From positions 1 to 28,890 of the IMG/VR virus record IMGVR_UViG_3300006736_000065: a stretch of 28,890 bases of DNA, one strand, 5' to 3'. The translations under genes were made by a program, and so were the position numbers. The number at the start of each line of letters is the position of its first letter. The stretch's first letter is position 1. The notes under the pieces are model-generated. The model made no database searches. It worked only from the letters and a program-made list of their open reading frames with translations, and was not told the origin of the DNA. This DNA comes from a virus. Shown here in pieces: positions 8,350 through 28,890 of this stretch.

Positions 8350-11300
8350 ATGGAAAAAACTAAATCTAAGATTCCTTTTGTTGGTCTGCATGCACATAGC
8401 GTCGTTGGTTCACCTTTCGACGGTTTTGGCTATCCGCAGGACCACATGGATTTTGCATATGAGAACGGCAGCAGCGCACTAGCACTTACTGACCATGGCA
8501 ACATGAATGGTATGTCTTACCAGGTTTTGCATGCCAAGAAAATGAAGACAGCTGGAAAAATTTTTAAGCCAATTTTCGGAGTTGAGGCTTACTTCGTCCC
8601 CTCGGTGGCGAAATGGAAAGAAGCCTATGAACAGGCCAAGGCAGATAAAAAGACTGCTAGACAGTTAGAAAAAGAAGACGGCAGACTTGTCACAGAAGAT
8701 GAGGGTGCCTCGAAACAAAAGAACAACATCATTAAAGCTCGCAGGCATCTGGTGTTGCTTGCTCAAAATCAAGCTGGTCTTAATAATATCTTTAAAATTG
8801 TTTCTGAAACACACCAAGGAGATAATTTTTATCGTTATCCTCGCGTAGATTATAAGCTATTGGAAAAATATAACGATGGAATTATTGCGTCTTCCGCTTG
8901 TCTTGGTGGTGTATACGCTGGAAATTATTGGGATAACCTCGACGATGGTCCGGATGCTATTGTAAATGCAATGCGTCAAACAACTGAGAAAATGCAATCA
9001 ATCCTAGGTGACCGCTGGTATGGAGAGTTGCAATGGAATAACATTGCAGCACAACATGAGCTTAATCAGTATGTAGTTCAAATGCACCATGAATATGGTA
9101 TTGAACTTATTTCAACAGCTGATAGTCATTATCCGAATCCGGACGCATGGAAAGACCGCGAGCTATATAGGCGCTTGGGCTTTCTTAATCGTCCTAGAAA
9201 ACCAGAATGGTTGACGTCAGAACTTCCTATTGATGTTGATGAAATAGGAATGGAGCTTTATCCGAAGAATGGCGACCAAATGTGGGAATCCTATAAGAAG
9301 TACTCAGAAGAGTGTCAAACATTATATGATGATGACTTAGTATACGATTCTATTGTTAAGACTCACTATATTGCACATGAGCGTATCGAAGACTTCATGC
9401 CAGACGACACGGTTCGTCTACCAAGCTTCGTTGTACCAGACGGTGATACCGCAGACGAAGCGCTTTTGAAGATTTCAGTTGCAGCTTTGCGCAGTATGAG
9501 CTTGGGTGATAACAAAGAATATTCTGACCGCCTACAACATGAGTTAAATGTCATCGTCGATCGCGGATTCTCAAAGTATTTTCTCACCATGAAAGCCATT
9601 GCAGATAAGGCGAATGATCATATGCTCTCTGGCCCAGGCCGAGGATCCGCCGCTGGTTCTCTTGTGGCTTACGTGTTAGGCATCACACAGATTGACCCGA
9701 TTAAATATGGCCTTCTATTCAGCCGCTTCCTGCGCGCCGACGCCATGGATTATCCAGACATTGATTATGATGTCAGTGATGCTTTTGGCTTGAAGGAGAT
9801 TTTAGCTGAAGAGTGGGGTGAGACCACAGTTGTGCCTATTTCTAACTTTAATACTCTTCAGCTAAGATCTTTGGTAAAAGACATTTCAAAGTTTTACGGC
9901 GTTCCGTTTGTGGAGGTTAACAGTGTAACTGGTAATATGGTTAAAGAGGCCACGCCGAAGGCCAAAGCAAAGAATGGAATTAAATCTGGCGTATACGTGC
10001 CAACATTTGAAGAGCTTATGGAATTCTCTGATAGCTTACAAAGATTTTTAAATAAGTATCCGCACATTAAAACTCATATCGAAGCCTTATATGGACAAGT
10101 ACGTTCAGTTAGCCGACATGCAGGCGGCGTTGTTGTTGGGGAAAATTTGGACAACCATATGCCACTTATTAACCGTGGCGGTGTGATACAAACGCCATGG
10201 CCCGAAGGGCAAAATGTGCGTCATTTGGAACCTCTTGGCTTTATTAAGTTTGATTTGTTAGGTCTCTCAACATTAGAGATGATTCAGTCTGCTGTTGGTC
10301 ATGTCCTCAAGAGACATCATGGCATCGACAACCCGACCTACGAGGATATCAAAAAATACTACGACGAAAATTTACATCCAGATAAAATTGATCTTTTTGA
10401 TCAACAGGTGTATAAAAACATTTTTCATAAAGGCAAATTCATCGGAGTGTTTCAATTTACAAATGACGGCGCACAGAGATTTTGCAAGAGCGCAAAACCA
10501 AGTAGCATCGTTGATATTGCCGCAATTACATCTATTTACCGACCTGGCCCTCTAGGTGCTAAGGTCGATCGTCAATATGTTAAAGCAAAGAAAAACCCTG
10601 ATAGTATCAACTACGTTAATGATCTAGTAAAAGAAGTAACACAAGAAACTGCTGGATTTCTTATTTTTCAAGAGCAGATTGCTTTGTTGGCCCACAAGCT
10701 TGGCAACGGAATTACTCTTGACGAAGGTAACAAGCTTCGTAAGCTTTTGACAAAGAAAGGCACAGGCAAAGGAAATGAAGAGAAAGAACAAATCAGAAAA
10801 AGATTTATTGAAGGATGCGTTGCTAAGTCAATTGCTCGACCCGCCGCCGCTGAACTCTGGAGAAACTTTGAGTATTTTAGTGGCTATGGGTTTAACAAGT
10901 CTCATGCTGTTGCTTATAGTCTCCTATCTTATCAGTGTGCCTGGCTTTTAAATTATTATCCAGAGTGTTGGTCTGCAGCCTTTTTGGACAAGGAACCTGA
11001 GTCGAGAAAAGCATCGGCAATAAGTCTTGCACAGCAATATGGTTTTGATATCGATGTAATTGATATTAACACTTCTACAAAAGAGTGGGAGATTTCAGAA
11101 GATGGAAATACTTTAATTCAGCCTTTCAGTTCTATTAAGGGAATGGGAGACAAAGCTATTGAGCAGATTATTAATAACAGGCCGTTTGAGTCTATTGAAG
11201 ACTTGCTTTTTAGCGAAGATATTATCTATTCAAAATTAAATAAGAAGGCTTTGGATGTTTTGTGTCGTTCCGGTGCTTTGGATTCCTTGGTGGACGATCG

Positions 11301-11778
11301 GTTTAACGGATGCAAACATTTCTGGATGGCTTGTATCCAAGATCGCCCTAGGTCCGCAAAACAGCTGCAGGAGAAAATTAATTTGTATTCTCCCGAAGAA
11401 GATTTTACAAGCGAAGAGAAGATTGAACACATTTCTACACTAACTGGAATGTTTCCATTTGATTTGGTATTGACAAAACAAATTCGAGAATCAATTCTCC
11501 GTTATCAAGTTCCACCTTTGGGCGAATGGGATAATGATTTAGGCGTTGCTTGGTTTATCCCCCGCGAGGTACTTTCTAAAAAAACTAAACATGGAAAGAC
11601 CTACTGGATTGTTAAGGTAGTCGATGATTCTTCGGTCTTATCAACGATTAGGTGTTGGGGTGTTAAAGATGACGATATAATTCACATCAATAGACCATAT
11701 GCTGCTAAATTGGATTATAATGATGAGTGGGGCTTCAGCACTCGATCTATTCGACATACATTTAAATTATTAGGATAG
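8350..11778 (+). CDS. dnaE: DNA polymerase III alpha subunit (DnaE-type replicase)
   Basis: At 1142 residues this is a full-length family C polymerase. The N-terminal PHP domain keeps all nine metal ligands known from DnaE enzymes with active PHP sites: His14, His16, Asp24, His49, Glu79, His133, Cys184, Asp258 and His260. The polymerase core has SGPGRGSAAGSLVAYVLG, the catalytic YPDIDYD with Asp470 and Asp472, and Asp635 in IKFDLLGL, matching E. coli Asp401, Asp403 and Asp555. Later blocks include SIYRPGPLGA, FQEQIALLAH and FNKSHAVAYSLLSYQ. The C-terminus (about 1040-1142) looks like an OB fold. It should be the phage replicative polymerase. No separate proofreading subunit, clamp or clamp loader is visible in this window. 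Confidence 0.96.
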   Translation: MEKTKSKIPFVGLHAHSVVGSPFDGFGYPQDHMDFAYENGSSALALTDHGNMNGMSYQVLHAKKMKTAGKIFKPIFGVEAYFVPSVAKWKEAYEQAKADKKTARQLEKEDGRLVTEDEGASKQKNNIIKARRHLVLLAQNQAGLNNIFKIVSETHQGDNFYRYPRVDYKLLEKYNDGIIASSACLGGVYAGNYWDNLDDGPDAIVNAMRQTTEKMQSILGDRWYGELQWNNIAAQHELNQYVVQMHHEYGIELISTADSHYPNPDAWKDRELYRRLGFLNRPRKPEWLTSELPIDVDEIGMELYPKNGDQMWESYKKYSEECQTLYDDDLVYDSIVKTHYIAHERIEDFMPDDTVRLPSFVVPDGDTADEALLKISVAALRSMSLGDNKEYSDRLQHELNVIVDRGFSKYFLTMKAIADKANDHMLSGPGRGSAAGSLVAYVLGITQIDPIKYGLLFSRFLRADAMDYPDIDYDVSDAFGLKEILAEEWGETTVVPISNFNTLQLRSLVKDISKFYGVPFVEVNSVTGNMVKEATPKAKAKNGIKSGVYVPTFEELMEFSDSLQRFLNKYPHIKTHIEALYGQVRSVSRHAGGVVVGENLDNHMPLINRGGVIQTPWPEGQNVRHLEPLGFIKFDLLGLSTLEMIQSAVGHVLKRHHGIDNPTYEDIKKYYDENLHPDKIDLFDQQVYKNIFHKGKFIGVFQFTNDGAQRFCKSAKPSSIVDIAAITSIYRPGPLGAKVDRQYVKAKKNPDSINYVNDLVKEVTQETAGFLIFQEQIALLAHKLGNGITLDEGNKLRKLLTKKGTGKGNEEKEQIRKRFIEGCVAKSIARPAAAELWRNFEYFSGYGFNKSHAVAYSLLSYQCAWLLNYYPECWSAAFLDKEPESRKASAISLAQQYGFDIDVIDINTSTKEWEISEDGNTLIQPFSSIKGMGDKAIEQIINNRPFESIEDLLFSEDIIYSKLNKKALDVLCRSGALDSLVDDRFNGCKHFWMACIQDRPRSAKQLQEKINLYSPEEDFTSEEKIEHISTLTGMFPFDLVLTKQIRESILRYQVPPLGEWDNDLGVAWFIPREVLSKKTKHGKTYWIVKVVDDSSVLSTIRCWGVKDDDIIHINRPYAAKLDYNDEWGFSTRSIRHTFKLLG

Positions 11779-12562: not shown

Positions 12563-13585
12563 ATGAAACAGACCTATTCCTTTGATGATGTGTTATTAAC
12601 ACCACAATATAGCACAATAGAAAGTCGTAGCCAAATTGATATAGGAAATAACTTAGATTCATTTACGAGATTAGAATTGCCTGTCATATCCAGCCCAATG
12701 GATACTATAACTGAATCGGCTATGGCTACCATTATGAGCCAGTTTGGTGGGTTAGGAATTATTCATAGATATAACTCGATTGAAGAACAAGTTGATCTTG
12801 TGCGTGAAGCCAACGCTCCCTCTACAACATCCGTCGCAGTTGCTATTGGGGTCACGGGTGACTACGAGGAAAGAGCCGTCGCTCTTTACGAAGCCGGTGC
12901 AAGAGTTATATGTATCGACGTTGCTCACGGCCACCATTCTTTAGTAAAGCATGCTTTGTCCTCCATTCGCGAACTGTTGGGAAACAAAGTACATGTAATG
13001 GCTGGTAATGTAGCAACCCTAGAAGCTTTCGACGCCTTGGCATCCTGGGGCGCAGATTCAATTCGCGTGGGGATTGGAGGAGGATCTATTTGTTCCACAC
13101 GGCTCGTGACTGGCCACGGAATTCCAACTTTTCAAAGTATTTTAAACTGCGCGAGGACTAGTTATGATGTAAAAATTATTGCCGACGGCGGTATAAGAAC
13201 AACCGGCGACATGGTTAAGGCGTACGCCGCCGGCGCAGATTTTGTTATGATTGGCTCTATGTTGGCCGGCACAAAAGAAACTCCAGGTGAAGTATTTTTT
13301 GGTAAAGCAGATAAAAAATATAAAGTTTATAGGGGCATGGCATCGGCCAACGCCCAAACTGCCTGGAGGGGGAAAACTTCAACTCCAGAAGGCGTTTCAA
13401 CTACCGTTCCGTTTAGGGGTAGTGTTGGGAATATCCTTCAAGATATTATTGGTGGCATTCGCAGTGGCCTGTCTTATTCAGGCGCACATGATTTGGCAGA
13501 ACTTCGATGTAAGGCATCTTTCGTCTTACAATCAAGCGCATCACAACTAGAGAGCAATACTCATATTCTTTGGAAAAATAAATGA
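12563..13585 (+). CDS. IMP dehydrogenase / GMP reductase family enzyme
   Basis: The 340-residue TIM-barrel protein starts with [15 protein letters not shown] and [16 protein letters not shown], as in IMPDH and GMPR. The catalytic loop [17 protein letters not shown] has Cys177; [30 protein letters not shown] binds phosphate. There is no CBS pair between barrel strands, and the length matches GMP reductase. The segment after YRGMAS is short and lacks both the IMPDH Arg-Tyr flap and the GMPR EMAM-type Glu, while [12 protein letters not shown] is mixed. It acts on IMP, XMP or GMP, but direction cannot be fixed from sequence. AGGAGG lies 7 nt before the ATG. It overlaps the next gene by 4 nt (ATGA). 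Confidence 0.92.
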
Positions 13586-14244: not shown

Positions 14245-14814
14245 ATGTCCAAAAAAGTTTTAAACGAATCAGAAATTAGAAAATTTATGAAATATGCCAA
14301 TATCGGCAGCCTATCAAAAGGCTTTATTTCTCGCCTTAACGAAGGTGGAGCATATGGTAGAGATGACGATATAATGGAACAACCGGAAGAAGAAGAAATG
14401 CCCATGGGCGGGGAAGAGCCCGAAATGGACATGGGCGGAGAAGAGCCCGAAATGGACATGGGCGGAGAAGAGCCCGAAATGGACATGGGTGCAGAAGAAG
14501 GTGGCGGCGACGTTGAGGCTGAAGTTGTTGTCCCCGAAGAAGAAGTCGATGCGCTCAAAGTCGCTCGTGATGTTTTGGATAAGATCCTCGGCGCCGCCGA
14601 AGGGGAAGAAGGCGAGGGGCTAGAAGAGCCAATGCCGGGTGAAGAAGAAGTTGCCGAGCCCGGCGAAGAAGAGCCCCTGGAAGACGAAGAAGAAGTGATG
14701 CAAGAGCTTGAAGCTGCTGGCATTGAATTACAAGAAATGGATGATGATTTGGTACAAGAAGTAACACGTCGCGTCGCCGCTCGTCTTTTAAACAGTGTAA
14801 GAAAAAATCAGTAA
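14245..14814 (+). CDS. Very acidic repeat protein, probable prohead core/scaffold-like protein
   Basis: The 189-residue protein has a short basic, helical N-terminus (NESEIRKFMKYANIGSLSKG) ending in FISRLNEGG. A long Glu-rich low-complexity stretch with three exact MGGEEPEMD repeats follows (54-80), and the C-terminus is helical (DDLVQEVTRRVAARLLNSV). High acidity, low complexity and coiled-coil-like ends fit scaffold or core proteins of T4-like heads. The LNE/G site near residue 33 resembles the LxE site cut by T4 prohead protease. Its neighbours, a ClpP-type protease and a large conserved protein, support a head-assembly role, which remains inference. GGAG lies 8 nt before the ATG. Confidence 0.75.
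   Translation: MSKKVLNESEIRKFMKYANIGSLSKGFISRLNEGGAYGRDDDIMEQPEEEEMPMGGEEPEMDMGGEEPEMDMGGEEPEMDMGAEEGGGDVEAEVVVPEEEVDALKVARDVLDKILGAAEGEEGEGLEEPMPGEEEVAEPGEEEPLEDEEEVMQELEAAGIELQEMDDDLVQEVTRRVAARLLNSVRKNQ
14404..14484 (+). repeat. Three tandem 27-bp units encoding MGGEEPEMD
   Basis: The units start at 14404, 14431 and 14458. The second and third are identical and the first differs by one base (GGG for GGA), with a degenerate partial fourth copy from 14485. Reading frame is preserved, so copy number can change without disrupting the protein. Confidence 0.95.
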
Positions 14815-14850
14815 TAAAGATTAAATATTTATAAAAAAGAGGTTAGAATA

Positions 14851-14884
14851 AAGGCAAGGGGTTAGCCCCTTGCCTTTTGTTTTT
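14851..14884 (+). terminator. Rho-independent terminator
   Basis: An 11-bp perfect stem, AAGGCAAGGGG (14851-14861) with CCCCTTGCCTT (14866-14876), has a TTAG loop and is followed by TTGTTTTT. It ends the transcript carrying the acidic protein. The ribosome site of the next gene starts right after the T tract. Confidence 0.95.
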
Positions 14885-14895
14885 AGGAGGTAAAA

Positions 14896-15297
14896 TTGGA
14901 GGATTTAACTTGGGTTAATTCAATATTATGGTTTCTTGCCGGCGCAGTAACTTATAAGGTTGGAACACTTGTTTTAAGTATGAGCGTGTCATTGGCTTTG
15001 TTCAATGAGACTATATATCACGTTTTGAATATTTTAAAAATGGGGGACGAGAACTACCACGCCGCGTCTGAATTAAAATATGAAGTGATGAAAGCTGCAA
15101 ATTGTAGTAAAGAGGATACTGATGAAGTAAAAGATAAAGATAGAGATATTATTAACCTGTGGAGAGAATTATCCATAGCTATGATTTTATTTGCCTGTCC
15201 TGGTAAAGTCGGTCAAAGACTTAGTTTTAAAAATTGGGATCAAGCAATGAGACTTTTAAAAAAACAAGAGGCAAAAAATGAAAAAATTCTCAACTAA
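14896..15297 (+). CDS. Small membrane-anchored protein, 133 aa
   Basis: A TTG start lies 5 nt after AGGAGG. The N-terminal 40 residues contain a hydrophobic region (SILWFLAGAVTYKVGTLVLSMSVSLALF) that should span or insert in a membrane. The rest is charged and helical, with a second moderately hydrophobic segment (LSIAMILFACPG) near residue 95. I do not recognise the family. It follows a terminator directly and overlaps the ClpP-like gene by 20 nt, so it is either cotranscribed with it by readthrough or from an unseen promoter. It could be an assembly-site anchor, but there is no direct evidence. Confidence 0.75.
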   Translation: MEDLTWVNSILWFLAGAVTYKVGTLVLSMSVSLALFNETIYHVLNILKMGDENYHAASELKYEVMKAANCSKEDTDEVKDKDRDIINLWRELSIAMILFACPGKVGQRLSFKNWDQAMRLLKKQEAKNEKILN

Positions 15298-15904
15298 GAA
15301 AAAGAGTAACGGGGATGAACAAGAGACAAAAGAAACAGATTTTCTACTTAATTTTGCAGATACCCTTGAAAATAAGTTAAGGGTAACAGGAATTTACGGA
15401 GATATCAATGAAGAAAAGTGTTCTGAAGCTGTCTTTGGCATGCTTTTACTAGATTCTGAAAACAATAAAGCCGACGAAGAAGAAACTAATGATCCTGTCG
15501 ATTTTTATGTTTCGACATACGGCGGCCTTTCAACTGAAATGTTTGCAGTATATGATGTTATCAGAATGGTTCGCAAGCGGACACCAATACATACTTATGG
15601 CATCGGAAAAGTAATGTCAGCTGGTGTTTTATTATTAGCATCAGGCACGGACGGCGAAAGACGAATTGGAAGAAACTGTAGAGTTATGATTCATGGTGTT
15701 ATATCTGGCCAACACGGACACTTACAGGATGTTGAGAATGAGTTTGAAGAGGCTAAATTTACTCAGAGGCTTTATATTAAAGCTTTGGCTAAAGAGACAG
15801 ATATGACTGAGAGACATATTAAAAAACTTATGGATAGAAAAACTAACGTTTATATTGACGCAGAAAAAGCAGTTGAATTGGGAATTGCTGATATAGTTTT
15901 CTAA
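15278..15904 (+). CDS. clpP: ClpP-type serine protease (possible head maturation protease)
   Basis: The 208-residue protein follows the ClpP fold: DFYVSTYGGLSTEMFAVYDVI (the GG substrate strand), THTYGIGKVMSAGVLLLASG-like sequence with Ser114 as nucleophile, and RVMIHG with His139. Where cellular ClpP has its catalytic Asp two residues before the FLSAxEAxEYGLVD block, this protein has Asn190 (TNVYIDAEKAVELGIAD), a change also known in Listeria ClpP1. The MxA helix lacks the usual AASMA sequence. The 30-residue charged N-terminus is longer than in mature ClpP. The ClpP fold is used by many phages as prohead protease, and the position between an acidic core-like protein and a structural-looking protein suits that. 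Confidence 0.9.
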   Translation: MKKFSTKKKSNGDEQETKETDFLLNFADTLENKLRVTGIYGDINEEKCSEAVFGMLLLDSENNKADEEETNDPVDFYVSTYGGLSTEMFAVYDVIRMVRKRTPIHTYGIGKVMSAGVLLLASGTDGERRIGRNCRVMIHGVISGQHGHLQDVENEFEEAKFTQRLYIKALAKETDMTERHIKKLMDRKTNVYIDAEKAVELGIADIVF

Positions 15905-15923
15905 TTAATAAGAGGGTTTATAA

Positions 15924-17570
15924 ATGGATTCAAAAGAAATTAAATTTTTAAGAGAAAATGTATTTAACAAAAAAACAAATGATGTTTTCTCTATGACAAA
16001 AATGTTTGAGTTGTTAGAAGAGGTTATTGGTGAGTTTGGTCCGAACATGCTTTTTGAAAAGAAAGAATCACCGTATGCTCCTGGACCATTCTCTAAAAAG
16101 ACTCGTGCCGCGACACCTGTAGCAAAGATTACAGAAGCTTGGGGAAAAATAGGCCCCGACGATAGAGATATTATTGAACAATTTACTAAGAATTTAGGCG
16201 GCGAGACCAATACAGTTGAGGAAAAGATAACATTGATTGCTGACATTATCAATCCCAAAGAAGGGGAAACGAAAGCAGCGACGCTTGGTGAAATAATGAC
16301 AGTTATGATGGTTGTCCAAATTATGAATTCCATCTTAGGCGAATTTACTGAAGCTGCTGGTGGTTTTATTTTTGAGGGTTTTCTTGCTGGGCTGTTTGGC
16401 GGCCAGTCTGTTCAAATTACTGATCCAAAAGACCTCGCCGGCAACCCTGCAGGCCGCGTTGAAGTGGGCCCCGACGGGGAAGCTTCCGAAGTGGCGGGCA
16501 AACCAATCACAGATGTTGTGTTGGGTGGCCAACATTACTCTCTTAAGCTTTTGGGCCCAAAGACAGCTGTTAAGGGCTCTTTCACAAACATGATTCAGCA
16601 CTTTATTGATTACGATCATGTTGTTTATCTCGACGCCCGCCGACAAGGCTCAACTCTTCATTTTTCTGAATTTGATATTACCCTTGAAAAATTCTTAGAT
16701 GTTTTCTTTAGACCTTGGGCAAAGATTAAGCAGCTACAAAAGAAATACTCTACTTCTCAAAGCTTGACAAAAGCTCTTGATTCTTTTGGCAGAAAGGCAT
16801 GGAAAGTAAGCTTCGCAACTATGCCACTGACTAGAAAAGGCTTGGCACAACAAATTGGTATCTTCTCTACTAAAAGAGGATTTGATATAGTCGACGGGGC
16901 CCCAAGTAAAGAATTGGAAGCATTGCTTGCTGTTGATCCAAAATTATTAAAACCTTTTGGTCCATTCACGGTACATTACTCCGAAGAGAGATTTGGAGGC
17001 GCAAAACTTAAAAAACTATTCGGCTCTGCACGACAATTTAATGAAATTCAAGAAGCTCTTGCTGCGTTTAATGCGGGACAAATTGATCGTAAAGATATGA
17101 TTGCAAGATTGTTAGCACTCCCAGGCGCTGGAGGCGGGGGCAGTAGCGTAGAACAATTTATATTCACTGCCGAGCAAGTCAAAGAAATATCGAGTTATCG
17201 AGAGGTTGGAGTGCTAGAGTTAGGAGAGCCTGCTATGCAGAAAATATGGCTTGAGCACGGAGAGCTATTAAATGCTACCATGGCACCAGTTTATGAGACA
17301 TTGAACAGATTTACTGATAATGTAAATGAATACTTCTTGGCTAATGACAAGAGAAGGGGAGACCAGGCTGTTAATGATGCAGAAGACTTAGAAGCTGCTA
17401 CCTCCACTGCAGTCGAAGGCCTAGGCGCAGATCCCGGTCAGATGACTAAACAGCAAATTGCCGCTATGAATCGACGTACCAAGGCCCATGCGGCCACGTA
17501 CGGCGAGAGCCTAGATCGTGGGCTCTTCATCACAGACGAAGCGCTTGGAATCAACACCAGGAAGAAATAA
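15924..17570 (+). CDS. Large conserved phage protein, 548 aa, probably structural; possible nuclease-like core
   Basis: The N-terminal 120 residues are helical and charged. A hydrophobic, alanine/glycine-rich stretch follows (MTVMMVVQIMNSILGEF, then GGFIFEGFLAGLFGG). Next comes GKPITDVVLGGQHYSLKLLGP and KGSFTNMIQHF, then strand-rich sequence (VVYLDARRQGSTLHFSEFDITLEKF). From memory, similar proteins lie among head genes of marine T4-like phages. The D-x(n)-SLK and GS pattern recalls the PD-(D/E)xK nuclease fold, but the acidic residue before the Lys is Ser here, so activity is uncertain. The Gly-rich GAGGGGSS near 400 looks like a linker. A virion or assembly role is favoured by context. AGAGGG lies 8 nt before the ATG. 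Confidence 0.72.
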   Translation: MDSKEIKFLRENVFNKKTNDVFSMTKMFELLEEVIGEFGPNMLFEKKESPYAPGPFSKKTRAATPVAKITEAWGKIGPDDRDIIEQFTKNLGGETNTVEEKITLIADIINPKEGETKAATLGEIMTVMMVVQIMNSILGEFTEAAGGFIFEGFLAGLFGGQSVQITDPKDLAGNPAGRVEVGPDGEASEVAGKPITDVVLGGQHYSLKLLGPKTAVKGSFTNMIQHFIDYDHVVYLDARRQGSTLHFSEFDITLEKFLDVFFRPWAKIKQLQKKYSTSQSLTKALDSFGRKAWKVSFATMPLTRKGLAQQIGIFSTKRGFDIVDGAPSKELEALLAVDPKLLKPFGPFTVHYSEERFGGAKLKKLFGSARQFNEIQEALAAFNAGQIDRKDMIARLLALPGAGGGGSSVEQFIFTAEQVKEISSYREVGVLELGEPAMQKIWLEHGELLNATMAPVYETLNRFTDNVNEYFLANDKRRGDQAVNDAEDLEAATSTAVEGLGADPGQMTKQQIAAMNRRTKAHAATYGESLDRGLFITDEALGINTRKK

Positions 17571-17613: not shown

Positions 17614-17631
17614 ACTATACAGAGGTATATG

Positions 17632-19197
17632 ATGGCAAAGATTTACTCTGATGGCAAGAGCCTTCAAGAAAGTATTTTAAATGGCGTCAATAAATTAGCT
17701 GATAACGTGGCTTCGACGCTTGGACCACGAGGTCGCAACGTCATTATTCATGTTAAAGGTAAAAACCCCATCGTTACAAAAGATGGCGTAACTGTCGCTA
17801 AGTTTGTTGACTTCGAAGATGAATTTGAAAACGTTGGAGCACAGATTATTAAACAAGTTGCTTCTGAGACAAACAATTTAGCTGGTGACGGTACTACTAC
17901 TTCTACGGTACTTGCTCGTGGAATCTTAAATAATACACAAAAATACATTGCAGCCGGCGCGTCTCCTGTGGAGCTAAAGAGAGGGATGGATAAAGCCTTG
18001 GAAGAAATTGTCAAGAAGATTGAAGAGATCTCCAGACCCATCCAAACTCAAGAAGAAATTGAACACGTAGCTACAATCTCTGCTAATGGAGACAAGTCGA
18101 TTGGCAAGTTAATCTCGATGGCTGTCGACCAAGCTGGACACGACGGCGCCATCTCCATTGAAGAAGCCAAATCAATGGAAACCACACTAGATGTGACGGA
18201 GGGATTTAGATTTGATTCTGGATATTTTGCTAATGCCTTTGTTAACAATGAACGACGCGTCGCGGTCGAGCACGATGGTGCTTATATCCTTGTGACTGAT
18301 TATAAATTGGATACAGTACAAGAGATTCTACCGGCGCTGGAGTTGGTTGCTCGCGAGTCGAAACCCTTTGTTATTATTGCTGAAGAGGTCGAAGGACAAG
18401 CCCTTGCAGCGCTAATTATGAATGCCATGCGCGGCACTATGAAGGTTGCTGCAGTGAAGGCCCCTCGTTATGGCCAAGAGCGCCACAACATACTAAAAGA
18501 CCTGGCTCTAGCCGTAGGCGCAACTTTTGTTAGCAGAGAGTCTGGAAAGAAGCTAAGTGATATTAAATTAACTGATTTGGGCGAATGCAAAAAGATTGAA
18601 GTTTTAAAATACAGCACCACGATAGTCGGCGGTAATTCTGATTGGGAAGAGATTGACAAAAGAGTCGAATCTCTTAAAGAGGAAATCAGACAAATTGATG
18701 ATATCGCGGAATGTGAAAGAATACAAGAAAGAATAACTCGTTTGATCAGCGGCGTGGCTATAATTAAGGTAGGCGCTGCGACTGAAGTCGAGATGCTAGA
18801 AAAGAAATATCGAGTAGAAGATGCTCTAGAGGCGGTTAAATCTGCCTTAGAAGAGGGTATTGTTCCTGGCGGCGGGGTCGTGTTGGCTCGTTGCAAAGAC
18901 TTTAAAGTTGAAGTTGATAATGAAGATCAAAAATACGGAGCCGAGATTATAAGAAAATCTCTCGAATCGCCAATAAGACAAATGGCTCTCAACGCTGATG
19001 AATCTCCTGATTTGATTTTAAGTCTTGTCGAAAACGAGATGGGCAACTGCGGTTGGGATTATATTAGTAATAAAATGGTAGATATGATTGAAAGCGGGAT
19101 TACAGACCCAGCGAAGGTTACTCGTGTAGCACTTCAAAACGCTGTAAGTGCTGCTTCTATTTTAATCACCACCGGTCATGCAATTGTGGAGGTATAA
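17632..19197 (+). CDS. groEL: Chaperonin GroEL
   Basis: The 521-residue protein is a full-length group I chaperonin that folds proteins in an ATP-driven double ring. Visible motifs are LGPRGRNV (30-37), TKDGVTVAK with Asp51, AGDGTTTSTVLAR with Asp86, APRYGQER in the apical domain, and RVEDALEAVKSALEEGIVPGGGV with the ATP-hydrolysis Asp. The C-terminal GGM-type tail of cellular GroEL is missing; the protein ends at HAIVEV. The ATG at 17632, 6 nt after AGAGG, is preferred to the adjacent ATG at 17629. The GroES-like gene is 12 kb upstream, not in the same operon, unlike most bacteria. Likely clients are capsid proteins. Confidence 0.97.
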   Translation: MAKIYSDGKSLQESILNGVNKLADNVASTLGPRGRNVIIHVKGKNPIVTKDGVTVAKFVDFEDEFENVGAQIIKQVASETNNLAGDGTTTSTVLARGILNNTQKYIAAGASPVELKRGMDKALEEIVKKIEEISRPIQTQEEIEHVATISANGDKSIGKLISMAVDQAGHDGAISIEEAKSMETTLDVTEGFRFDSGYFANAFVNNERRVAVEHDGAYILVTDYKLDTVQEILPALELVARESKPFVIIAEEVEGQALAALIMNAMRGTMKVAAVKAPRYGQERHNILKDLALAVGATFVSRESGKKLSDIKLTDLGECKKIEVLKYSTTIVGGNSDWEEIDKRVESLKEEIRQIDDIAECERIQERITRLISGVAIIKVGAATEVEMLEKKYRVEDALEAVKSALEEGIVPGGGVVLARCKDFKVEVDNEDQKYGAEIIRKSLESPIRQMALNADESPDLILSLVENEMGNCGWDYISNKMVDMIESGITDPAKVTRVALQNAVSAASILITTGHAIVEV

Positions 19198-25368: not shown

Positions 25369-26055
25369 ATGAAGAATAAAATTTTAATTATGATGTGCCT
25401 GACACTGTTCTGTTCATGCACTCGCGTGTATGTGGATACAAAGCCAAACCTCCCATTTGATTCTTTCGTGCGGATTGAGATGAAGCGTTACAAAGCAAAT
25501 TGTATTACTTGTGTGTTGGAAGCTGGCTCTGGCTCTGGAACTGTTGTGGCATCAAACAAAGTTTTGACTGCTGGGCATATATGTGCTGGGGTTCGTGAGA
25601 TGGTTGATAACGCAGCACAGTCTGAAGTTCTTGATAAAGTTCTTGTAACTATCCACGATGACAAAGAAAATACATATGCTGCAGTTGAGTTGAATATCCA
25701 CACTTCAAGAGATATCTGCTTAATGAAGACCGGCCGATCTTTGTTGGCGGATCCAATACCAGTCGCACGCGAAAATCCCTCACGGGGCAAAGTGGTATGG
25801 AGTATGATGGCACCAGATGGCGTTGCTGGAAAAGGCTTGGTCCCTGTTGTTTCTGGACATTTTGCCGGAGGCGATCGCCTAACGTCTGTCTTCACCATCC
25901 CTGCATATCCAGGTTCGTCAGGCGCTCCAATTCTTAACATCGCTGGTGAGATTGTTGGCCTTGTTTCACAAATCAACAAAAGGTTTCATCATATCGTTGT
26001 CTCGCCTTCACGCAGATCTTTAAAAGCTTTTATTTATTCCGGAGAAAGTAGATGA
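25369..26055 (+). CDS. Trypsin-like serine protease with signal/lipoprotein-like N-terminus
   Basis: The 228-residue protein begins MKNKILIMMCLTLFCSCTRV, a short signal sequence with Cys15 and Cys17; a lipobox is possible but not ideal. The catalytic triad is visible: His70 in VLTAGHIC, Asp115 in TSRDICLMK, and Ser184 in PAYPGSSGAPI. The GSGSGTVVASNKVLTAGH strand pair is typical of the chymotrypsin fold in the HtrA/V8 branch. There is no PDZ domain. It probably acts in the periplasm or at the envelope. The 3' end overlaps the next gene by 4 nt. The ribosome site is weak. Confidence 0.9.
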   Translation: MKNKILIMMCLTLFCSCTRVYVDTKPNLPFDSFVRIEMKRYKANCITCVLEAGSGSGTVVASNKVLTAGHICAGVREMVDNAAQSEVLDKVLVTIHDDKENTYAAVELNIHTSRDICLMKTGRSLLADPIPVARENPSRGKVVWSMMAPDGVAGKGLVPVVSGHFAGGDRLTSVFTIPAYPGSSGAPILNIAGEIVGLVSQINKRFHHIVVSPSRRSLKAFIYSGESR

Positions 26056-26532: not shown

Positions 26533-26738
26533 AAGTGGGAGATTTAGTTAAGCTTGATCTTCATTTGAGTTTTACTAGTGGTATTAAATATGCTATTGGG
26601 ATACCATTCGATGCGATAGGTATAGTAATACAAGAAGAATGTGATGTTTGTAGTATTCTTTTTCCATCGCTGGATGATGAGATAAGAAGCTTTATAAAGA
26701 AAGACTTACAAGTTTTAAGTGAAAACGAATCTATTTAA
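26529..26738 (+). CDS. MKVGDLV-type small protein, 69 aa
   Basis: The product opens MKVGDLVKLDLHLSF, then AIGIPFDAIGIVIQEECDVCSILFPS, and ends with KDLQVLSENES, matching the barrel-like plan of its upstream neighbour with a longer first loop. It contains a CDVC pair that could be accidental. ATGA overlap with the preceding gene indicates coupled translation. Function is unknown; tandem position suggests duplication. Confidence 0.7.
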   Translation: MKVGDLVKLDLHLSFTSGIKYAIGIPFDAIGIVIQEECDVCSILFPSLDDEIRSFIKKDLQVLSENESI

Positions 26739-26742
26739 TAAT

Positions 26743-27288
26743 ATGAAAAGCATTTTAAAAAAGTGGAAAAACTTTCTCTTGAGGGAATCACTTAATGATT
26801 ATAATCAAGGTGGTATGATTAGGTTATATCATTTTACAAGAGGTACAGCACCCAAGTTGTTGTTAGACCCAGAATATTCTGTGACTCACGCTAACCCTTA
26901 TACACGAAAAGATTTTAATGTTTCACAACTACCGAGAATATATTTTTACGTTAATCTGGACCACACAGAAGAATTTGTTAGGCAAGGAGCAACACTTTAT
27001 AGTACCATGGTACCAATCAAAAATATATATGATTTAAGTGTTGATCCAGACAATCTTAAAGAAAAGGCTAGCCCTTATCCTGGGGTAACCACTGTACTAT
27101 ATGATAAAATATTGAGAAGTTTGGCCAATCAATTTCCGGAACATTGGAATACTGAAAGTCTTTTGGATCCTGGCACGCCTCCTTACGGTGGTGTGTTTTA
27201 TACCACAGGACAAATGGATATAGTAAGTTGGTTTGAGCCAATCGAAGTTCAAAAGTATAACTTAGATGATACAAACATGGAGGTTTAA
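26743..27288 (+). CDS. Leader-tagged protein with ADP-ribosyltransferase-like pattern, 181 aa
   Basis: ATG 26743 gives MKSILKKWKNFLLRESLNDY, a basic amphipathic helix ending LRE|S that resembles the T4 capsid-targeting leader (MKTYQEFIAE) and is shared with the genes at 27591 and 28832. The body reads MIRLYHFTRGTAPKLLL, then PRIYFYVNLDHTEEFV, VPIKNIYDL and GGVFYTTGQMDIVSWFEPIEV. The LYHxT start, aromatic second strand and late Glu are reminiscent of ADP-ribosyltransferase folds. That call is low-confidence; no full H-Y-E triad can be asserted. If both parts hold, it would be an internal head protein injected with DNA, like T4 Alt. No clear ribosome site is visible. An upstream start at 26719 is possible. 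Confidence 0.6.
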   Translation: MKSILKKWKNFLLRESLNDYNQGGMIRLYHFTRGTAPKLLLDPEYSVTHANPYTRKDFNVSQLPRIYFYVNLDHTEEFVRQGATLYSTMVPIKNIYDLSVDPDNLKEKASPYPGVTTVLYDKILRSLANQFPEHWNTESLLDPGTPPYGGVFYTTGQMDIVSWFEPIEVQKYNLDDTNMEV

Positions 27289-27289
27289 A

Positions 27290-27631
27290 TTGAAAGTTAA
27301 TGATGTTGTGTTCCAAGATTATCAAGGGATCAGACGCTTTGGCGTGATCACAAATAAGATAATTAAAGAAGACAGGTGGGCGTATGTAAGAGTGAAATGG
27401 TTTGGTGATCAAAAATACAAAAAGGCTATGGATGTACTTAGCCAGATGCGCGGAGGAAATCATTTCCTCGATGAATACCGAATCGATCAATTACACGCAT
27501 TAAATGTTAATCATGAAATTGATACCTTAAACAAATGCAAAAGATATGTAAATCGACGTCGTGTCTTAAAAAATAGGAGTCTTAATTCAAATGAAGGAAA
27601 TTTTAGAGAGTTGGAAAAGGTTTTTGAATGA
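27290..27631 (+). CDS. MKVNDVV-type protein, 113 aa
   Basis: A TTG start at 27290 follows GGAGG by 6 nt and gives MKVNDVVFQDYQGIRRFGVITNKI, in line with the other MKVGDLV proteins; the in-frame ATG at 27266 lies inside the previous gene. The middle AYVRVKWFGDQKYKKAMD completes the barrel-like part. A basic helical extension follows (HEIDTLNKCKRYVNRRRVLKNRSL), which the shorter relatives lack. Function is unknown. The last 41 nt overlap the next gene. Confidence 0.72.
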   Translation: MKVNDVVFQDYQGIRRFGVITNKIIKEDRWAYVRVKWFGDQKYKKAMDVLSQMRGGNHFLDEYRIDQLHALNVNHEIDTLNKCKRYVNRRRVLKNRSLNSNEGNFRELEKVFE

Positions 27632-28223
27632 GTCCTCGCTTTCGCGAGTTTATGGATTTATTCAAACAACTGACACTGCAATTATTTCAGCTTTTCGCGA
27701 CGACCCACTAGACCGGTCGAAGTGTGAAGATGCAGCCGTAGAGGAATCTGGCGAAGAAGGTACGACATTCCAAGTAAATCGGAGGAGAAGCCGCGACCTC
27801 AAAGCTGCAATGTTGTCTTTGAAATATGGTGTCACCAAAGTACGAGGAAGTTATATCGAAGATTTTGATACTCCTCAAGCTGTTGAAGTTACAGAAGAAA
27901 GTTTTTTTGTTGTTAATCTTGAAGAAGATCCTAATTTTATGAGTAATATCAAGAGATTAGGAGAAAAGTTTTGTCAAGATTCGGTACTTATTATTCCGAA
28001 AGGTGGCCAAGGTGCTCACCTCTTTGGAACAAACGATAGTGAATTTCCTGGGTACGGACAAAAGATTGAAGTTGGGAGTTTAAAGATGGGAGAAGAATCA
28101 GAATTTATGACGAGAGTCAATAAGCGTCCGCTCACCTTTACTGAAGGCCTTGAAACCTATAAGAATTTGTCTCGCAACGAGAGAATGGCTGTTAAGAATA
28201 TCGCAAAAGTGATTTTATCTTAA
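27591..28223 (+). CDS. Leader-tagged protein, 210 aa, weakly DUF3293-like
   Basis: The N-terminus MKEILESWKRFLNESSLSRV repeats the MKxILxxWKxFLxES leader of the 26743 gene and offers an LNE|S site like the T4 prohead protease target. The body has TAIISAFRDDP, NRRRSRDLKAAMLSLKYGVTKVRGSYIED and VTEESFFVVN, a layout that recalls DUF3293 (a domain of unknown function) though I cannot confirm it. The C-terminal part (GAHLFGTNDSEFPGYGQKIEVG) is not recognised. AGGAG lies 11 nt before the ATG. Packaging into the head is an inference from the leader. Confidence 0.68.
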   Translation: MKEILESWKRFLNESSLSRVYGFIQTTDTAIISAFRDDPLDRSKCEDAAVEESGEEGTTFQVNRRRSRDLKAAMLSLKYGVTKVRGSYIEDFDTPQAVEVTEESFFVVNLEEDPNFMSNIKRLGEKFCQDSVLIIPKGGQGAHLFGTNDSEFPGYGQKIEVGSLKMGEESEFMTRVNKRPLTFTEGLETYKNLSRNERMAVKNIAKVILS

Positions 28224-28243
28224 CAAATTAACGATATTCTAGT

Positions 28244-28251
28244 ACTATTTA
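28244..28251 (+). promoter_or_regulatory. ACTATTTA motif
   Basis: Exact copy of the octamer at 14193, 21936 and 28819. It lies 63 nt before the preferred start at 28315 and 6 nt before an in-frame ATG at 28258 that has no ribosome site. Confidence 0.35.
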
Positions 28252-28314
28252 CTTACGATGTATTTACCATTAACAGGATTTGAAAAACATTGTGAGGATA
28301 AAAGAGGTATTAAA

Positions 28315-28614
28315 ATGAAAGTCGGTTCAATTTCGTCACAGATGGTTAGGCCCATGCAGCCGAGCCAATCTGTACAAACACAGAATCAGAATGTTAACAA
28401 TCAGAATGACAATCAAAAGTCTCAGAATAATGCAGCCAGTATTACAAGTGAGAAATTTAACAGTCATAATTCCAAATGTAGTATGAGCACAGAAGATTTT
28501 TTGAAGTTACACAACTCAGGTATAGAACAGATAGCCGACGCTATTAAAGATGTGATGGCACTAAAAGTTATGGAAAAGGCTTTGGAAGTTATTGATAAAA
28601 TAGTTTCGGATTGA
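28315..28614 (+). CDS. Hypothetical Gln/Asn-rich protein, 99 aa
   Basis: The start at 28315 has AAAGAGG about 8 nt upstream; an in-frame ATG at 28258 lacks a ribosome site. Residues 10-50 are low in complexity and rich in Gln, Asn and Ser (QPSQSVQTQNQNVNNQNDNQ), probably disordered. The C-terminal half is helical with an amphipathic pattern (STEDFLKLHNSGIEQIADAIKDVMALKVMEKALEVIDKIV). The function is not recognised. Confidence 0.7.
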   Translation: MKVGSISSQMVRPMQPSQSVQTQNQNVNNQNDNQKSQNNAASITSEKFNSHNSKCSMSTEDFLKLHNSGIEQIADAIKDVMALKVMEKALEVIDKIVSD

Positions 28615-28617
28615 CTG

Positions 28618-28797
28618 ATGGATGTAGGCGACCTAGTGGCGGATAAAACAAAGCCTGGCTCACGTGGTATTATTGTTGAGGTTAGATCGATGACTAACAA
28701 AAGATCTAAGAATGTCTATACAACTTATTTGGTGCATTGGTTCGACACAGAGTTCAAGTCGACGCACGGCCCAACCCAGCTGGCCTTGATAGTTTAA
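28618..28797 (+). CDS. MDVGDLV-type small SH3-like protein, 59 aa
   Basis: The gene starts 3 nt after the previous stop and gives MDVGDLVADKTKPGSRGIIVEVRS, then VYTTYLVHWFDTEFKSTHGPTQLALIV. The GDLV strand, a G-I-I-V strand and the YLVHWFD strand match the small barrel pattern of the other family members. It has no strong ribosome site of its own and probably relies on coupling to the upstream gene. Function is unknown. Confidence 0.72.
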   Translation: MDVGDLVADKTKPGSRGIIVEVRSMTNKRSKNVYTTYLVHWFDTEFKSTHGPTQLALIV

Positions 28798-28812
28798 CTG
28801 TCATTATAAACG

Positions 28813-28826
28813 TAAATAACTATTTA
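28813..28826 (+). promoter_or_regulatory. TAAATA-AC-TATTTA palindrome with CTATTTA motif
   Basis: A perfect 6-bp inverted repeat around AC contains the ACTATTTA octamer (28819-28826). It ends 5 nt before the ATG at 28832, where no Shine-Dalgarno sequence is present. The same CTATTTA-5 nt-ATG arrangement occurs at 26731-26745. Confidence 0.35.
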
Positions 28827-28831
28827 TTGTT

Positions 28832-28890
28832 ATGAAGATGCAAAAGCTTTTCGCAAATTGGAGAAATTTCAAGAAGGACACTATTTTGGA
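28832..28890 (+). CDS. Leader-tagged protein, N-terminal fragment
   Basis: The frame is open to the window end and gives MKMQKLFANWRNFKKDTIL. It repeats the basic amphipathic W-x-x-F leader of the genes at 26743 and 27591, with FKKD in place of FLxE. Only 19 complete residues are visible, so the function cannot be judged. No ribosome site is visible; the CTATTTA motif lies 5 nt upstream. Confidence 0.55.
   Translation, partial: MKMQKLFANWRNFKKDTIL

What the first reader, a model, noticed from the sequence alone, without database searches (positions are those of the whole stretch)
26743..28890. Shared N-terminal leaders that look like T4 capsid-targeting sequences
Three genes (26743, 27591, 28832) open with MK-x-(I/M)L-type amphipathic helices containing W-x-x-F: MKSILKKWKNFLLRES, MKEILESWKRFLNESS and MKMQKLFANWRNFKKD. 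Their bodies are unrelated, so the leader behaves like a portable tag. In T4, internal head proteins carry MKTYQEFIAE, removed by the prohead protease after an (L/I)xE site; the first two leaders here offer LRE|S and LNE|S, and the acidic core-like protein at 14245 has LNE|G. The simplest reading is a set of proteins packaged in the head and injected at infection, with a tag sequence unlike T4's.
Basis: partly seen in the sequence, partly recalled or inferred. Interest (0 to 1): 0.72.

Follow-up and report, generated by a model that had tools for sequence, protein, structure and literature searches.

The report
Portable capsid-packing tag on phage effectors
Two unrelated proteins in this marine T4-like phage fragment (and probably a third, cut off by the window edge) begin with the same short tag, a variant of the T4 tag that loads proteins into the virus head; the tag recurs on more than a hundred unrelated protein families in ocean viruses, which yields a list of candidate proteins injected at the start of infection.

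Summary
A leader profile trained on 119 unrelated families ranks 27591 and 26743 first and second of 711 possible starts in the window; 28832 fits if read from the ATG at 28838 but is cut off. About 300 leader proteins fall into ~125 unrelated body families, and conservation stops right after an (L/I)xE. The leader's W8-x-x-F11-L12-x-E14 has the spacing of T4 CTS residues Y4, F7, I8, E10, shown in T4 to drive targeting (4, 7) and cleavage (8, 10). On the SAM-lyase body of 27591, relatives carry different leaders, including a T4-type MKTFKEFLEE, at the same junction E|SSLSR. The S-CREM2 relative was found by mass spectrometry in purified virions, and all 3 S-CREM2 genes matching the strict T4-type pattern are virion proteins. 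The 26743 body has an ADP-ribosyltransferase-like predicted fold; T4's injected Alt has that activity. Best reading: capsid-targeting sequences, cut by the T4-type protease, on injected effectors. Packaging and cleavage in this phage remain untested.

The parts
26731..26737 (+). CTATTTA, late-promoter-like element 12 nt before the ATG of 26743, which has no Shine-Dalgarno sequence
   Evidence: strand-biased element (10 vs 0 in the window); in relatives it also lies 25-40 nt upstream of the scaffold-like and tail genes
26743..26787 (+). Leader 1: MKSILKKWKNFLLRE, proposed capsid-targeting sequence, predicted cut after E15
   Evidence: 10.8 bits, rank 2 of 711; residues 1-13 of the model pLDDT < 50, outside the folded body; leader on all listed viral-contig homologues
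26788..27288 (+). Body 1: ADP-ribosyltransferase-like fold (candidate injected effector)
   Evidence: invariant LYH and FFY motifs; listed VIA-align rows are mostly ADP-ribosyltransferase-fold chains (best Z 6.9)
27575..27579 (+). AGGAG, Shine-Dalgarno-like sequence of 27591
27591..27632 (+). Leader 2: MKEILESWKRFLNE, proposed capsid-targeting sequence, predicted cut after E14
   Evidence: 29.6 bits, rank 1 of 711; invariant E|SSL junction, other leaders in other phages
27633..28223 (+). Body 2: S-adenosylmethionine lyase family (PF23780), candidate injected anti-restriction enzyme
   Evidence: 42.9 bits, cut-off 28; homologue S-CREM2 ORF6 found in virions, 19 unique peptides
28820..28826 (+). 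CTATTTA, late-promoter-like element 12 nt before the ATG at 28832
28832..28890 (+). Gene 3, cut by the window end; leader MQKLFANWRNFKKDTIL from the ATG at 28838 (W in the canonical register), LxE not visible
   Evidence: 12.3 bits from 28838, -44 from 28832; compare MKKLFENWRRFKKDILNE in L092
28245..28251 (+). CTATTTA element 13 nt before the ATG at 28258
14245..14814 (+). Acidic protein of a conserved family (LNESEIRKFMKxAN...), conserved (L/I)xE at the end of its N-terminal block; no W leader; candidate core protein

Best explanation
The leaders are capsid-targeting sequences of a T4-superfamily marine phage. They are a longer variant of the T4 CTS: an amphipathic MKxLLxx extension in front of the T4-like core aromatic-x-x-F-(L/I)-x-E. 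During prohead assembly the leader would dock the protein into the core, with W8 and F11 doing the work of T4 Y4 and F7. The T4-type (S77/gp21) protease would then cut after the E, freeing the body inside the head, and the body would be ejected into the host with the DNA. Cargo here: a SAM-lyase-family protein (27591), expected to lower SAM and so blunt restriction-modification, and an ADP-ribosyltransferase-like protein (26743) that may modify host proteins as Alt does. Shown: leader, portability, junction, body families, protease in relatives, virion location of one homologue. Inferred: packaging, cutting, injection and target of these particular proteins.
For: Leader ranks first and second in the window. 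120+ stretches in IMG/VR vs 1 for the swapped control. 304 leader proteins in ~125 body families; conservation ends after E14, and where E is out of register a displaced (L/I)xE lies in residues 9-20 in 34 of 52 vs 3-6 of 52 in distant windows. Conserved as protein, not DNA, with abundant synonymous change. Leaders within one contig are more alike than between contigs (67 vs 58%, 0 of 500 permutations). S77 protease in 10/10 leader contigs of 130 kb or more and gp23-type MCP in relatives. Same body, same junction E|SSLSR with different leaders: MKTFKEFLEE, MQFKQYILGE, MKDFDSFLEE...LEE. T4 ipII/ipIII MKTYQEFIAE with residues 4 and 7 for targeting, 8 and 10 for processing (PMC9026906). S-CREM2: ORF6 homologue with 19 unique peptides in CsCl virions (PMC10665884); 3/3 strict and 5/5 extended T4-type-leader genes are virion proteins among 219 with 52 virion (p = 0.013 and 0.0006). 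Late-promoter-like element before leader genes and structural genes. Cargo hits: ART, kinases, peptidases, SAM lyase, DnaJ.
Against: No proteomics of any phage with the W-type leader. S-CREM2 leaders are the short F type, its authors warn of co-purification, and its extended pattern was fixed after seeing the N-termini. The window fragment shows none of the head module. The LxE of 26743 is one residue out of register and that of 28832 is unseen. Random contigs of 60-170 kb also carry S77 in 3 of 11. The ART assignment rests on modest structural scores and no family hit.
Confidence: 0.85

Rival explanations
1. The leader docks proteins to another assembly or cell site (tail hub, membrane, a phage-made compartment) and is not removed; LxE is just the helix end.
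For: The leader is predicted helical and amphipathic; no cleavage has been seen in this group.
Against: Leader swapped for a T4-type CTS on the same body; a displaced LxE appears when it is out of register; S-CREM2 virion data.
Confidence: 0.07
2. A core-binding leader that is packaged and works inside the head (assembly or DNA compaction) but is not injected, or is injected without host function.
For: T4 IPIII affects head assembly (PMC9026906).
Against: Many cargo matches are enzyme families better suited to host cells: SAM lyase, ART, kinases, Zeta-toxin-type ATPase, transglutaminase-like, peptidases.
Confidence: 0.06
3. The conserved stretch is a DNA-level element (recombination junction or translation signal) that is incidentally coding.
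For: Bodies are exchanged behind it; a conserved CTATTTA lies just upstream in some cases.
Against: Abundant synonymous change with residue-level conservation.
Confidence: 0.02

Closest known systems
T4 capsid-targeting sequence (IPII/IPIII MKTYQEFIAE; IPI MKTFKEF...)
   Same: N-terminal, portable over unrelated bodies, aromatic-x-x-F-(I/L)-x-E with the same spacing, T4-type protease in the phage group
   Different: Four residues longer, MKxLLxxW start, W instead of Y/F; found on ~125 families, up to ten or so genes in one genome (G010)
Kyanoviridae short leaders (S-CREM2 ORF6/14/154 MKxFxxFL(E/T)E; AG-345 MKTFKEFLEE)
   Same: Same core and junction; one shared body family (SAM lyase); S-CREM2 members found in virions
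   Different: Short T4-length leader with F
Alishewanella phage Slicko01 leaders (MKI(D/E)xLYxxLLEE on ART-like proteins)
   Same: N-terminal, aromatic-x-x-L-(L/I)-x-E, ART-like bodies
   Different: Different sequence; cluster of five genes; not described as a tag in the record
T4 Alt
   Same: ADP-ribosyltransferase carried in the head and injected, cut by gp21
   Different: No sequence relation was tested; the 26743 body is known as ART-like only from its predicted fold

Membership tests
T4-type capsid-targeting sequence | Short N-terminal propeptide at the start Met | tested here: met
   14-15 residues
T4-type capsid-targeting sequence | Targeting residues: aromatic and F three apart (T4 Y4, F7) | tested here: met
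   W8 and F11 in both complete window leaders
T4-type capsid-targeting sequence | Processing site (I/L)-x-E directly after the targeting residues | tested here: met
   LNE in register in 27591; LRE one residue later in 26743; unseen in 28832
T4-type capsid-targeting sequence | Same tag on unrelated bodies | tested here: met
   ~125 body families
T4-type capsid-targeting sequence | gp21/S77 protease in the same genome | tested here: inconclusive
   Head module not seen in the 28.9 kb fragment; present in relatives G002, G009, G010 and in 10/10 long leader contigs
T4-type capsid-targeting sequence | Packaging and cleavage shown by experiment | not testable with these tools
   Only a homologue of the 27591 body (S-CREM2 ORF6) is known from virions
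S-adenosylmethionine lyase (PF23780) | Profile score above the curated cut-off | tested here: met
   42.9 bits vs 28
S-adenosylmethionine lyase (PF23780) | Catalytic residues and activity | not tested
   Residues not mapped to a solved lyase; no PDB sequence match
ADP-ribosyltransferase (26743 body) | ART fold | tested here: inconclusive
   AF2 pLDDT 76; best Z 6.9, most listed rows ART-fold chains, Foldseek E 0.011
ADP-ribosyltransferase (26743 body) | Match to a curated ART profile | tested here: not met
   No Pfam ART family at E <= 1

The most novel reading that the evidence does not exclude
The W-type leader imitates a piece of the phage's own major capsid protein propeptide (LLENQ-xx-(x)-(F/L)L-x-E), so cargo would enter the prohead through the binding site meant for the shell protein; any gene that acquires the 14-residue mimic becomes an injected effector, and the >100 cargo families found here are a largely unread effector arsenal of marine T4-like phages. 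Support: with the W position masked, the propeptide segment is the best window of all six-frame ORFs in S-CREM2 (19.2 bits of 253,360 windows) and best in a 50 kb stretch of T4, and ranks 2nd in G009, 3rd in G006, about 14th in G002. One insertion was allowed in most cases, and the idea was formed after seeing the data.
Probability: 0.3. Interest if true: 0.85.

Novelty: new variant of a known kind. Interest (0 to 1): 0.72.

Why it matters
In T4 the CTS is known from a handful of proteins. Here one tag, readable from sequence alone, marks about 125 unrelated protein families in marine T4-like phages as probable head cargo. That turns many proteins of unknown function into ranked candidates for injected anti-defence or host-takeover proteins, and gives a simple test (N-termini after LxE in virions). 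It also links cyanophage virion enzymes already seen by mass spectrometry (SAM hydrolase, kinase, cytidylyltransferase) to a shared loading signal that the S-CREM2 passages read here do not mention. Of the 15 open-access papers that use the term capsid targeting sequence, none treats marine phages in its title or in the abstract opening shown.

Tried and rejected
Megablast of the window's first 25 kb against phage records: no match. tblastn of a bare 21-residue leader: no match, too short. Pfam, PHROGs and PDB sequence searches for the 26743 body: nothing usable; a fold was needed. PDB sequence match for the SAM-lyase body: none. DNA-level element: rejected by synonymous variation. The LNESEIRKFMK N-terminus of 14245 as another portable tag: rejected, it is one conserved family. 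S77 presence as proof by itself: weakened, because 3 of 11 random contigs also have it.

Full report
Setting. The window is a 28.9 kb virus record, a fragment, with no near DNA match among phage records for its first 25 kb. Relatives were found through the 27591 protein and read whole where long (G002 157.7 kb, G009 104.9 kb, G010 147.4 kb and others). G002, G009, G010 and Alishewanella phage Slicko01 carry the T4-type prohead protease Peptidase_S77, and these plus G003 and G006 carry gp23-type capsid proteins, so the group belongs to the T4 superfamily. The head genes themselves were not seen in this window.

Observation. The three N-termini are as quoted. To test chance, a profile of the first 14 residues was built from 119 families not represented in the window and run over all start codons with an open frame. 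In the window 27591 scores 29.6 bits and 26743 10.8 bits, ranks 1 and 2 of 711; no other start reaches 7, and the reversed sequence peaks at -18. Gene 28832 scores well only from its second ATG (28838), where W falls in the usual position 8 (12.3 bits); the window ends before its LxE could be seen.

The tag elsewhere. A looser scan of those loci found 352 N-termini, 300 with W at residue 8. Requiring an LxE leaves 304 proteins; clustering their bodies by BLAST gives 125 families. A few of these are spurious short frames, so about 120 is a fair number. Alignments of unrelated representatives give the consensus MK(L)LLENWRKFLxE followed by no consensus. One per family, information is 3.5 bits at E14 and 0.9 bits at residue 15. 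Among 168 N-termini that do not match the search pattern, 69% still have E at position 14 and 86% an aliphatic residue at 12. In those without an in-register site, an (L/I)xE occurs in residues 9-20 in 34 of 52, against 3-6 of 52 in windows further in. The leader is conserved as protein: third codon positions vary freely. Leaders on different bodies in one contig are more alike than leaders from different contigs (67 vs 58%, none of 500 permutations), as expected if they adapt to a partner in their own phage or spread by copying within a genome. G010 carries about ten leader genes, mostly between 122 and 145 kb.

Relation to T4. T4 ipII and ipIII begin MKTYQEFIAE. Experiments reviewed in PMC9026906 place targeting at residues 4 and 7 and processing at 8 and 10. 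W8-x-x-F11-L12-x-E14 has exactly that spacing. The leader is therefore a longer, W-bearing version of the same signal rather than an unrelated one; whether by descent or convergence cannot be said from 14 residues.

Exchange on one body. The 27591 body is a SAM-lyase family member (PF23780, 42.9 bits, cut-off 28). Its homologues share an almost invariant junction ESSL(S/A)R, but what stands before it differs: MKEILESWKRFLNE| in the window, MKTFKEFLEE| in marine single-cell viruses AG-345-L05 (Kyanoviridae) and AG-345-E15, MQFKQYILGE| in Microcystis phage Mel-JY01, MKDFDSFLEEFDRDQESLEE| in Synechococcus phage S-CREM2, MNFEQLLESEINALSE| in Slicko01. A T4-type CTS and the W leader thus replace each other at the same place on the same protein, which is the strongest sequence evidence that they do the same job. 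It remains possible that ESSLSR is conserved for the enzyme's own sake.

Virion evidence. In S-CREM2 the homologue (ORF6) was detected in CsCl-purified virions with 19 unique peptides, along with an APH-like kinase (ORF14) and a cytidylyltransferase (ORF154) (PMC10665884). I read the N-termini of all 219 S-CREM2 genes. The strict T4-type pattern matches three, ORFs 6, 14 and 154, all virion proteins (p = 0.013 given 52 virion proteins of 219); the slightly wider pattern matches five, all virion proteins (p = 0.0006), but that pattern was fixed after seeing the N-termini. The authors caution that such proteins might co-purify. This concerns the short F-type leader, not the W type.

The other body. 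The 26743 family (21 viral relatives, all with the leader, with W or F at position 8; part of that search used the leader itself as a pattern) has invariant LYH and FFY motifs. AlphaFold2 (pLDDT 76) leaves residues 1-13 unsettled and folds the rest. Foldseek's best PDB match is a toxin of a Vibrio toxin-antitoxin pair (VPA0770, E 0.011), followed by PARP catalytic domains; VIA-align's listed chains are mostly ADP-ribosyltransferases or their fold relatives (ParT, RES/MbcT, NatT, DarT, KptA/Tpt1, PARPs), best Z 6.9. These scores are modest and no sequence profile matches, so ART-like is a probable fold, not a shown activity. T4 packages an ADP-ribosyltransferase, Alt (PMC9026906), and several other leader families also match ART profiles. 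A distant homologue in Microcystis phage Mel-JY01 begins MSLINVIIE|A, without the aromatic residues.

Expression. CTATTTA is strand-biased (10 vs 0 in the window; 24 vs 4, 21 vs 2, 26 vs 7 and 17 vs 2 in G002, G009, G010, G006) and precedes the scaffold-like gene and tail genes by 25-40 nt in relatives; before 26743, 28832 and several other leader genes it lies 12-13 nt from the ATG with no ribosome-binding site. I read it as the group's late-promoter element, which would make these genes late, and some mRNAs leaderless. This is inference from position only.

Mechanism. Shown: the tag, its portability, its junction, the cargo families, the protease in relatives, the virion location of one homologue. 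Inferred: docking into the prohead core by W8/F11, cutting after E by the gp21-type protease, ejection with DNA, and host effects (SAM depletion, protein ADP-ribosylation). With W masked, the leader profile's best match in S-CREM2, and in a 50 kb stretch of T4, is a segment of the capsid protein's own propeptide, which suggests mimicry of the shell protein; this was a late, partly post-hoc finding and is offered as the novel case only.

Noticed in passing
L086:110-2200, G009 7.6-11.8 kb (- strand), G002 80.3-80.7 kb and many others: A second recurrent N-terminus, MKITKxQLKxIIKEEL, stands on many small dissimilar proteins of the same phages (48 found by one pattern); a similar stretch (MKITREQLKEKIRIIVKRVLNEA) ends the C-terminus of the Mel-JY01 SAM-lyase homologue.
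   Followed up: partly
window 26731, 28245, 28820: CTATTTA 12-13 nt before start codons without a Shine-Dalgarno sequence suggests leaderless late mRNAs in this phage group.
   Followed up: partly
L013:35888-41558 (Slicko01 85888-91558, - strand): Five genes in a cluster begin MKIxxLYxxLLE(E/A) or close to it: four look ART-like and one kinase-like; a third leader type in an isolated phage.
   Followed up: partly
L195:7704-10313 (- strand), S-CREM2 ORF12: A protein annotated as Cas9-like is in the virion and has RFASFMAE|A, a CTS-like core, at residues 18-25.
   Followed up: no
window 14245-17570: Acidic LNESEIRKFMK-family protein, a short protein, a ClpP-like protease and a 548-residue protein of unknown family stand in a row; the ClpP-like protein also matches head maturation protease profiles.
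   Followed up: no
window 8350-11778, 12563-13585, 17629-19197: By sequence the phage appears to carry a bacterial-type DNA polymerase III alpha subunit, an IMP dehydrogenase-like protein and a GroEL-like chaperonin (read from the translations, not searched).
   Followed up: no
window 25369-26055: Trypsin-like serine protease (PF13365) with a lipoprotein-like signal sequence.
   Followed up: no
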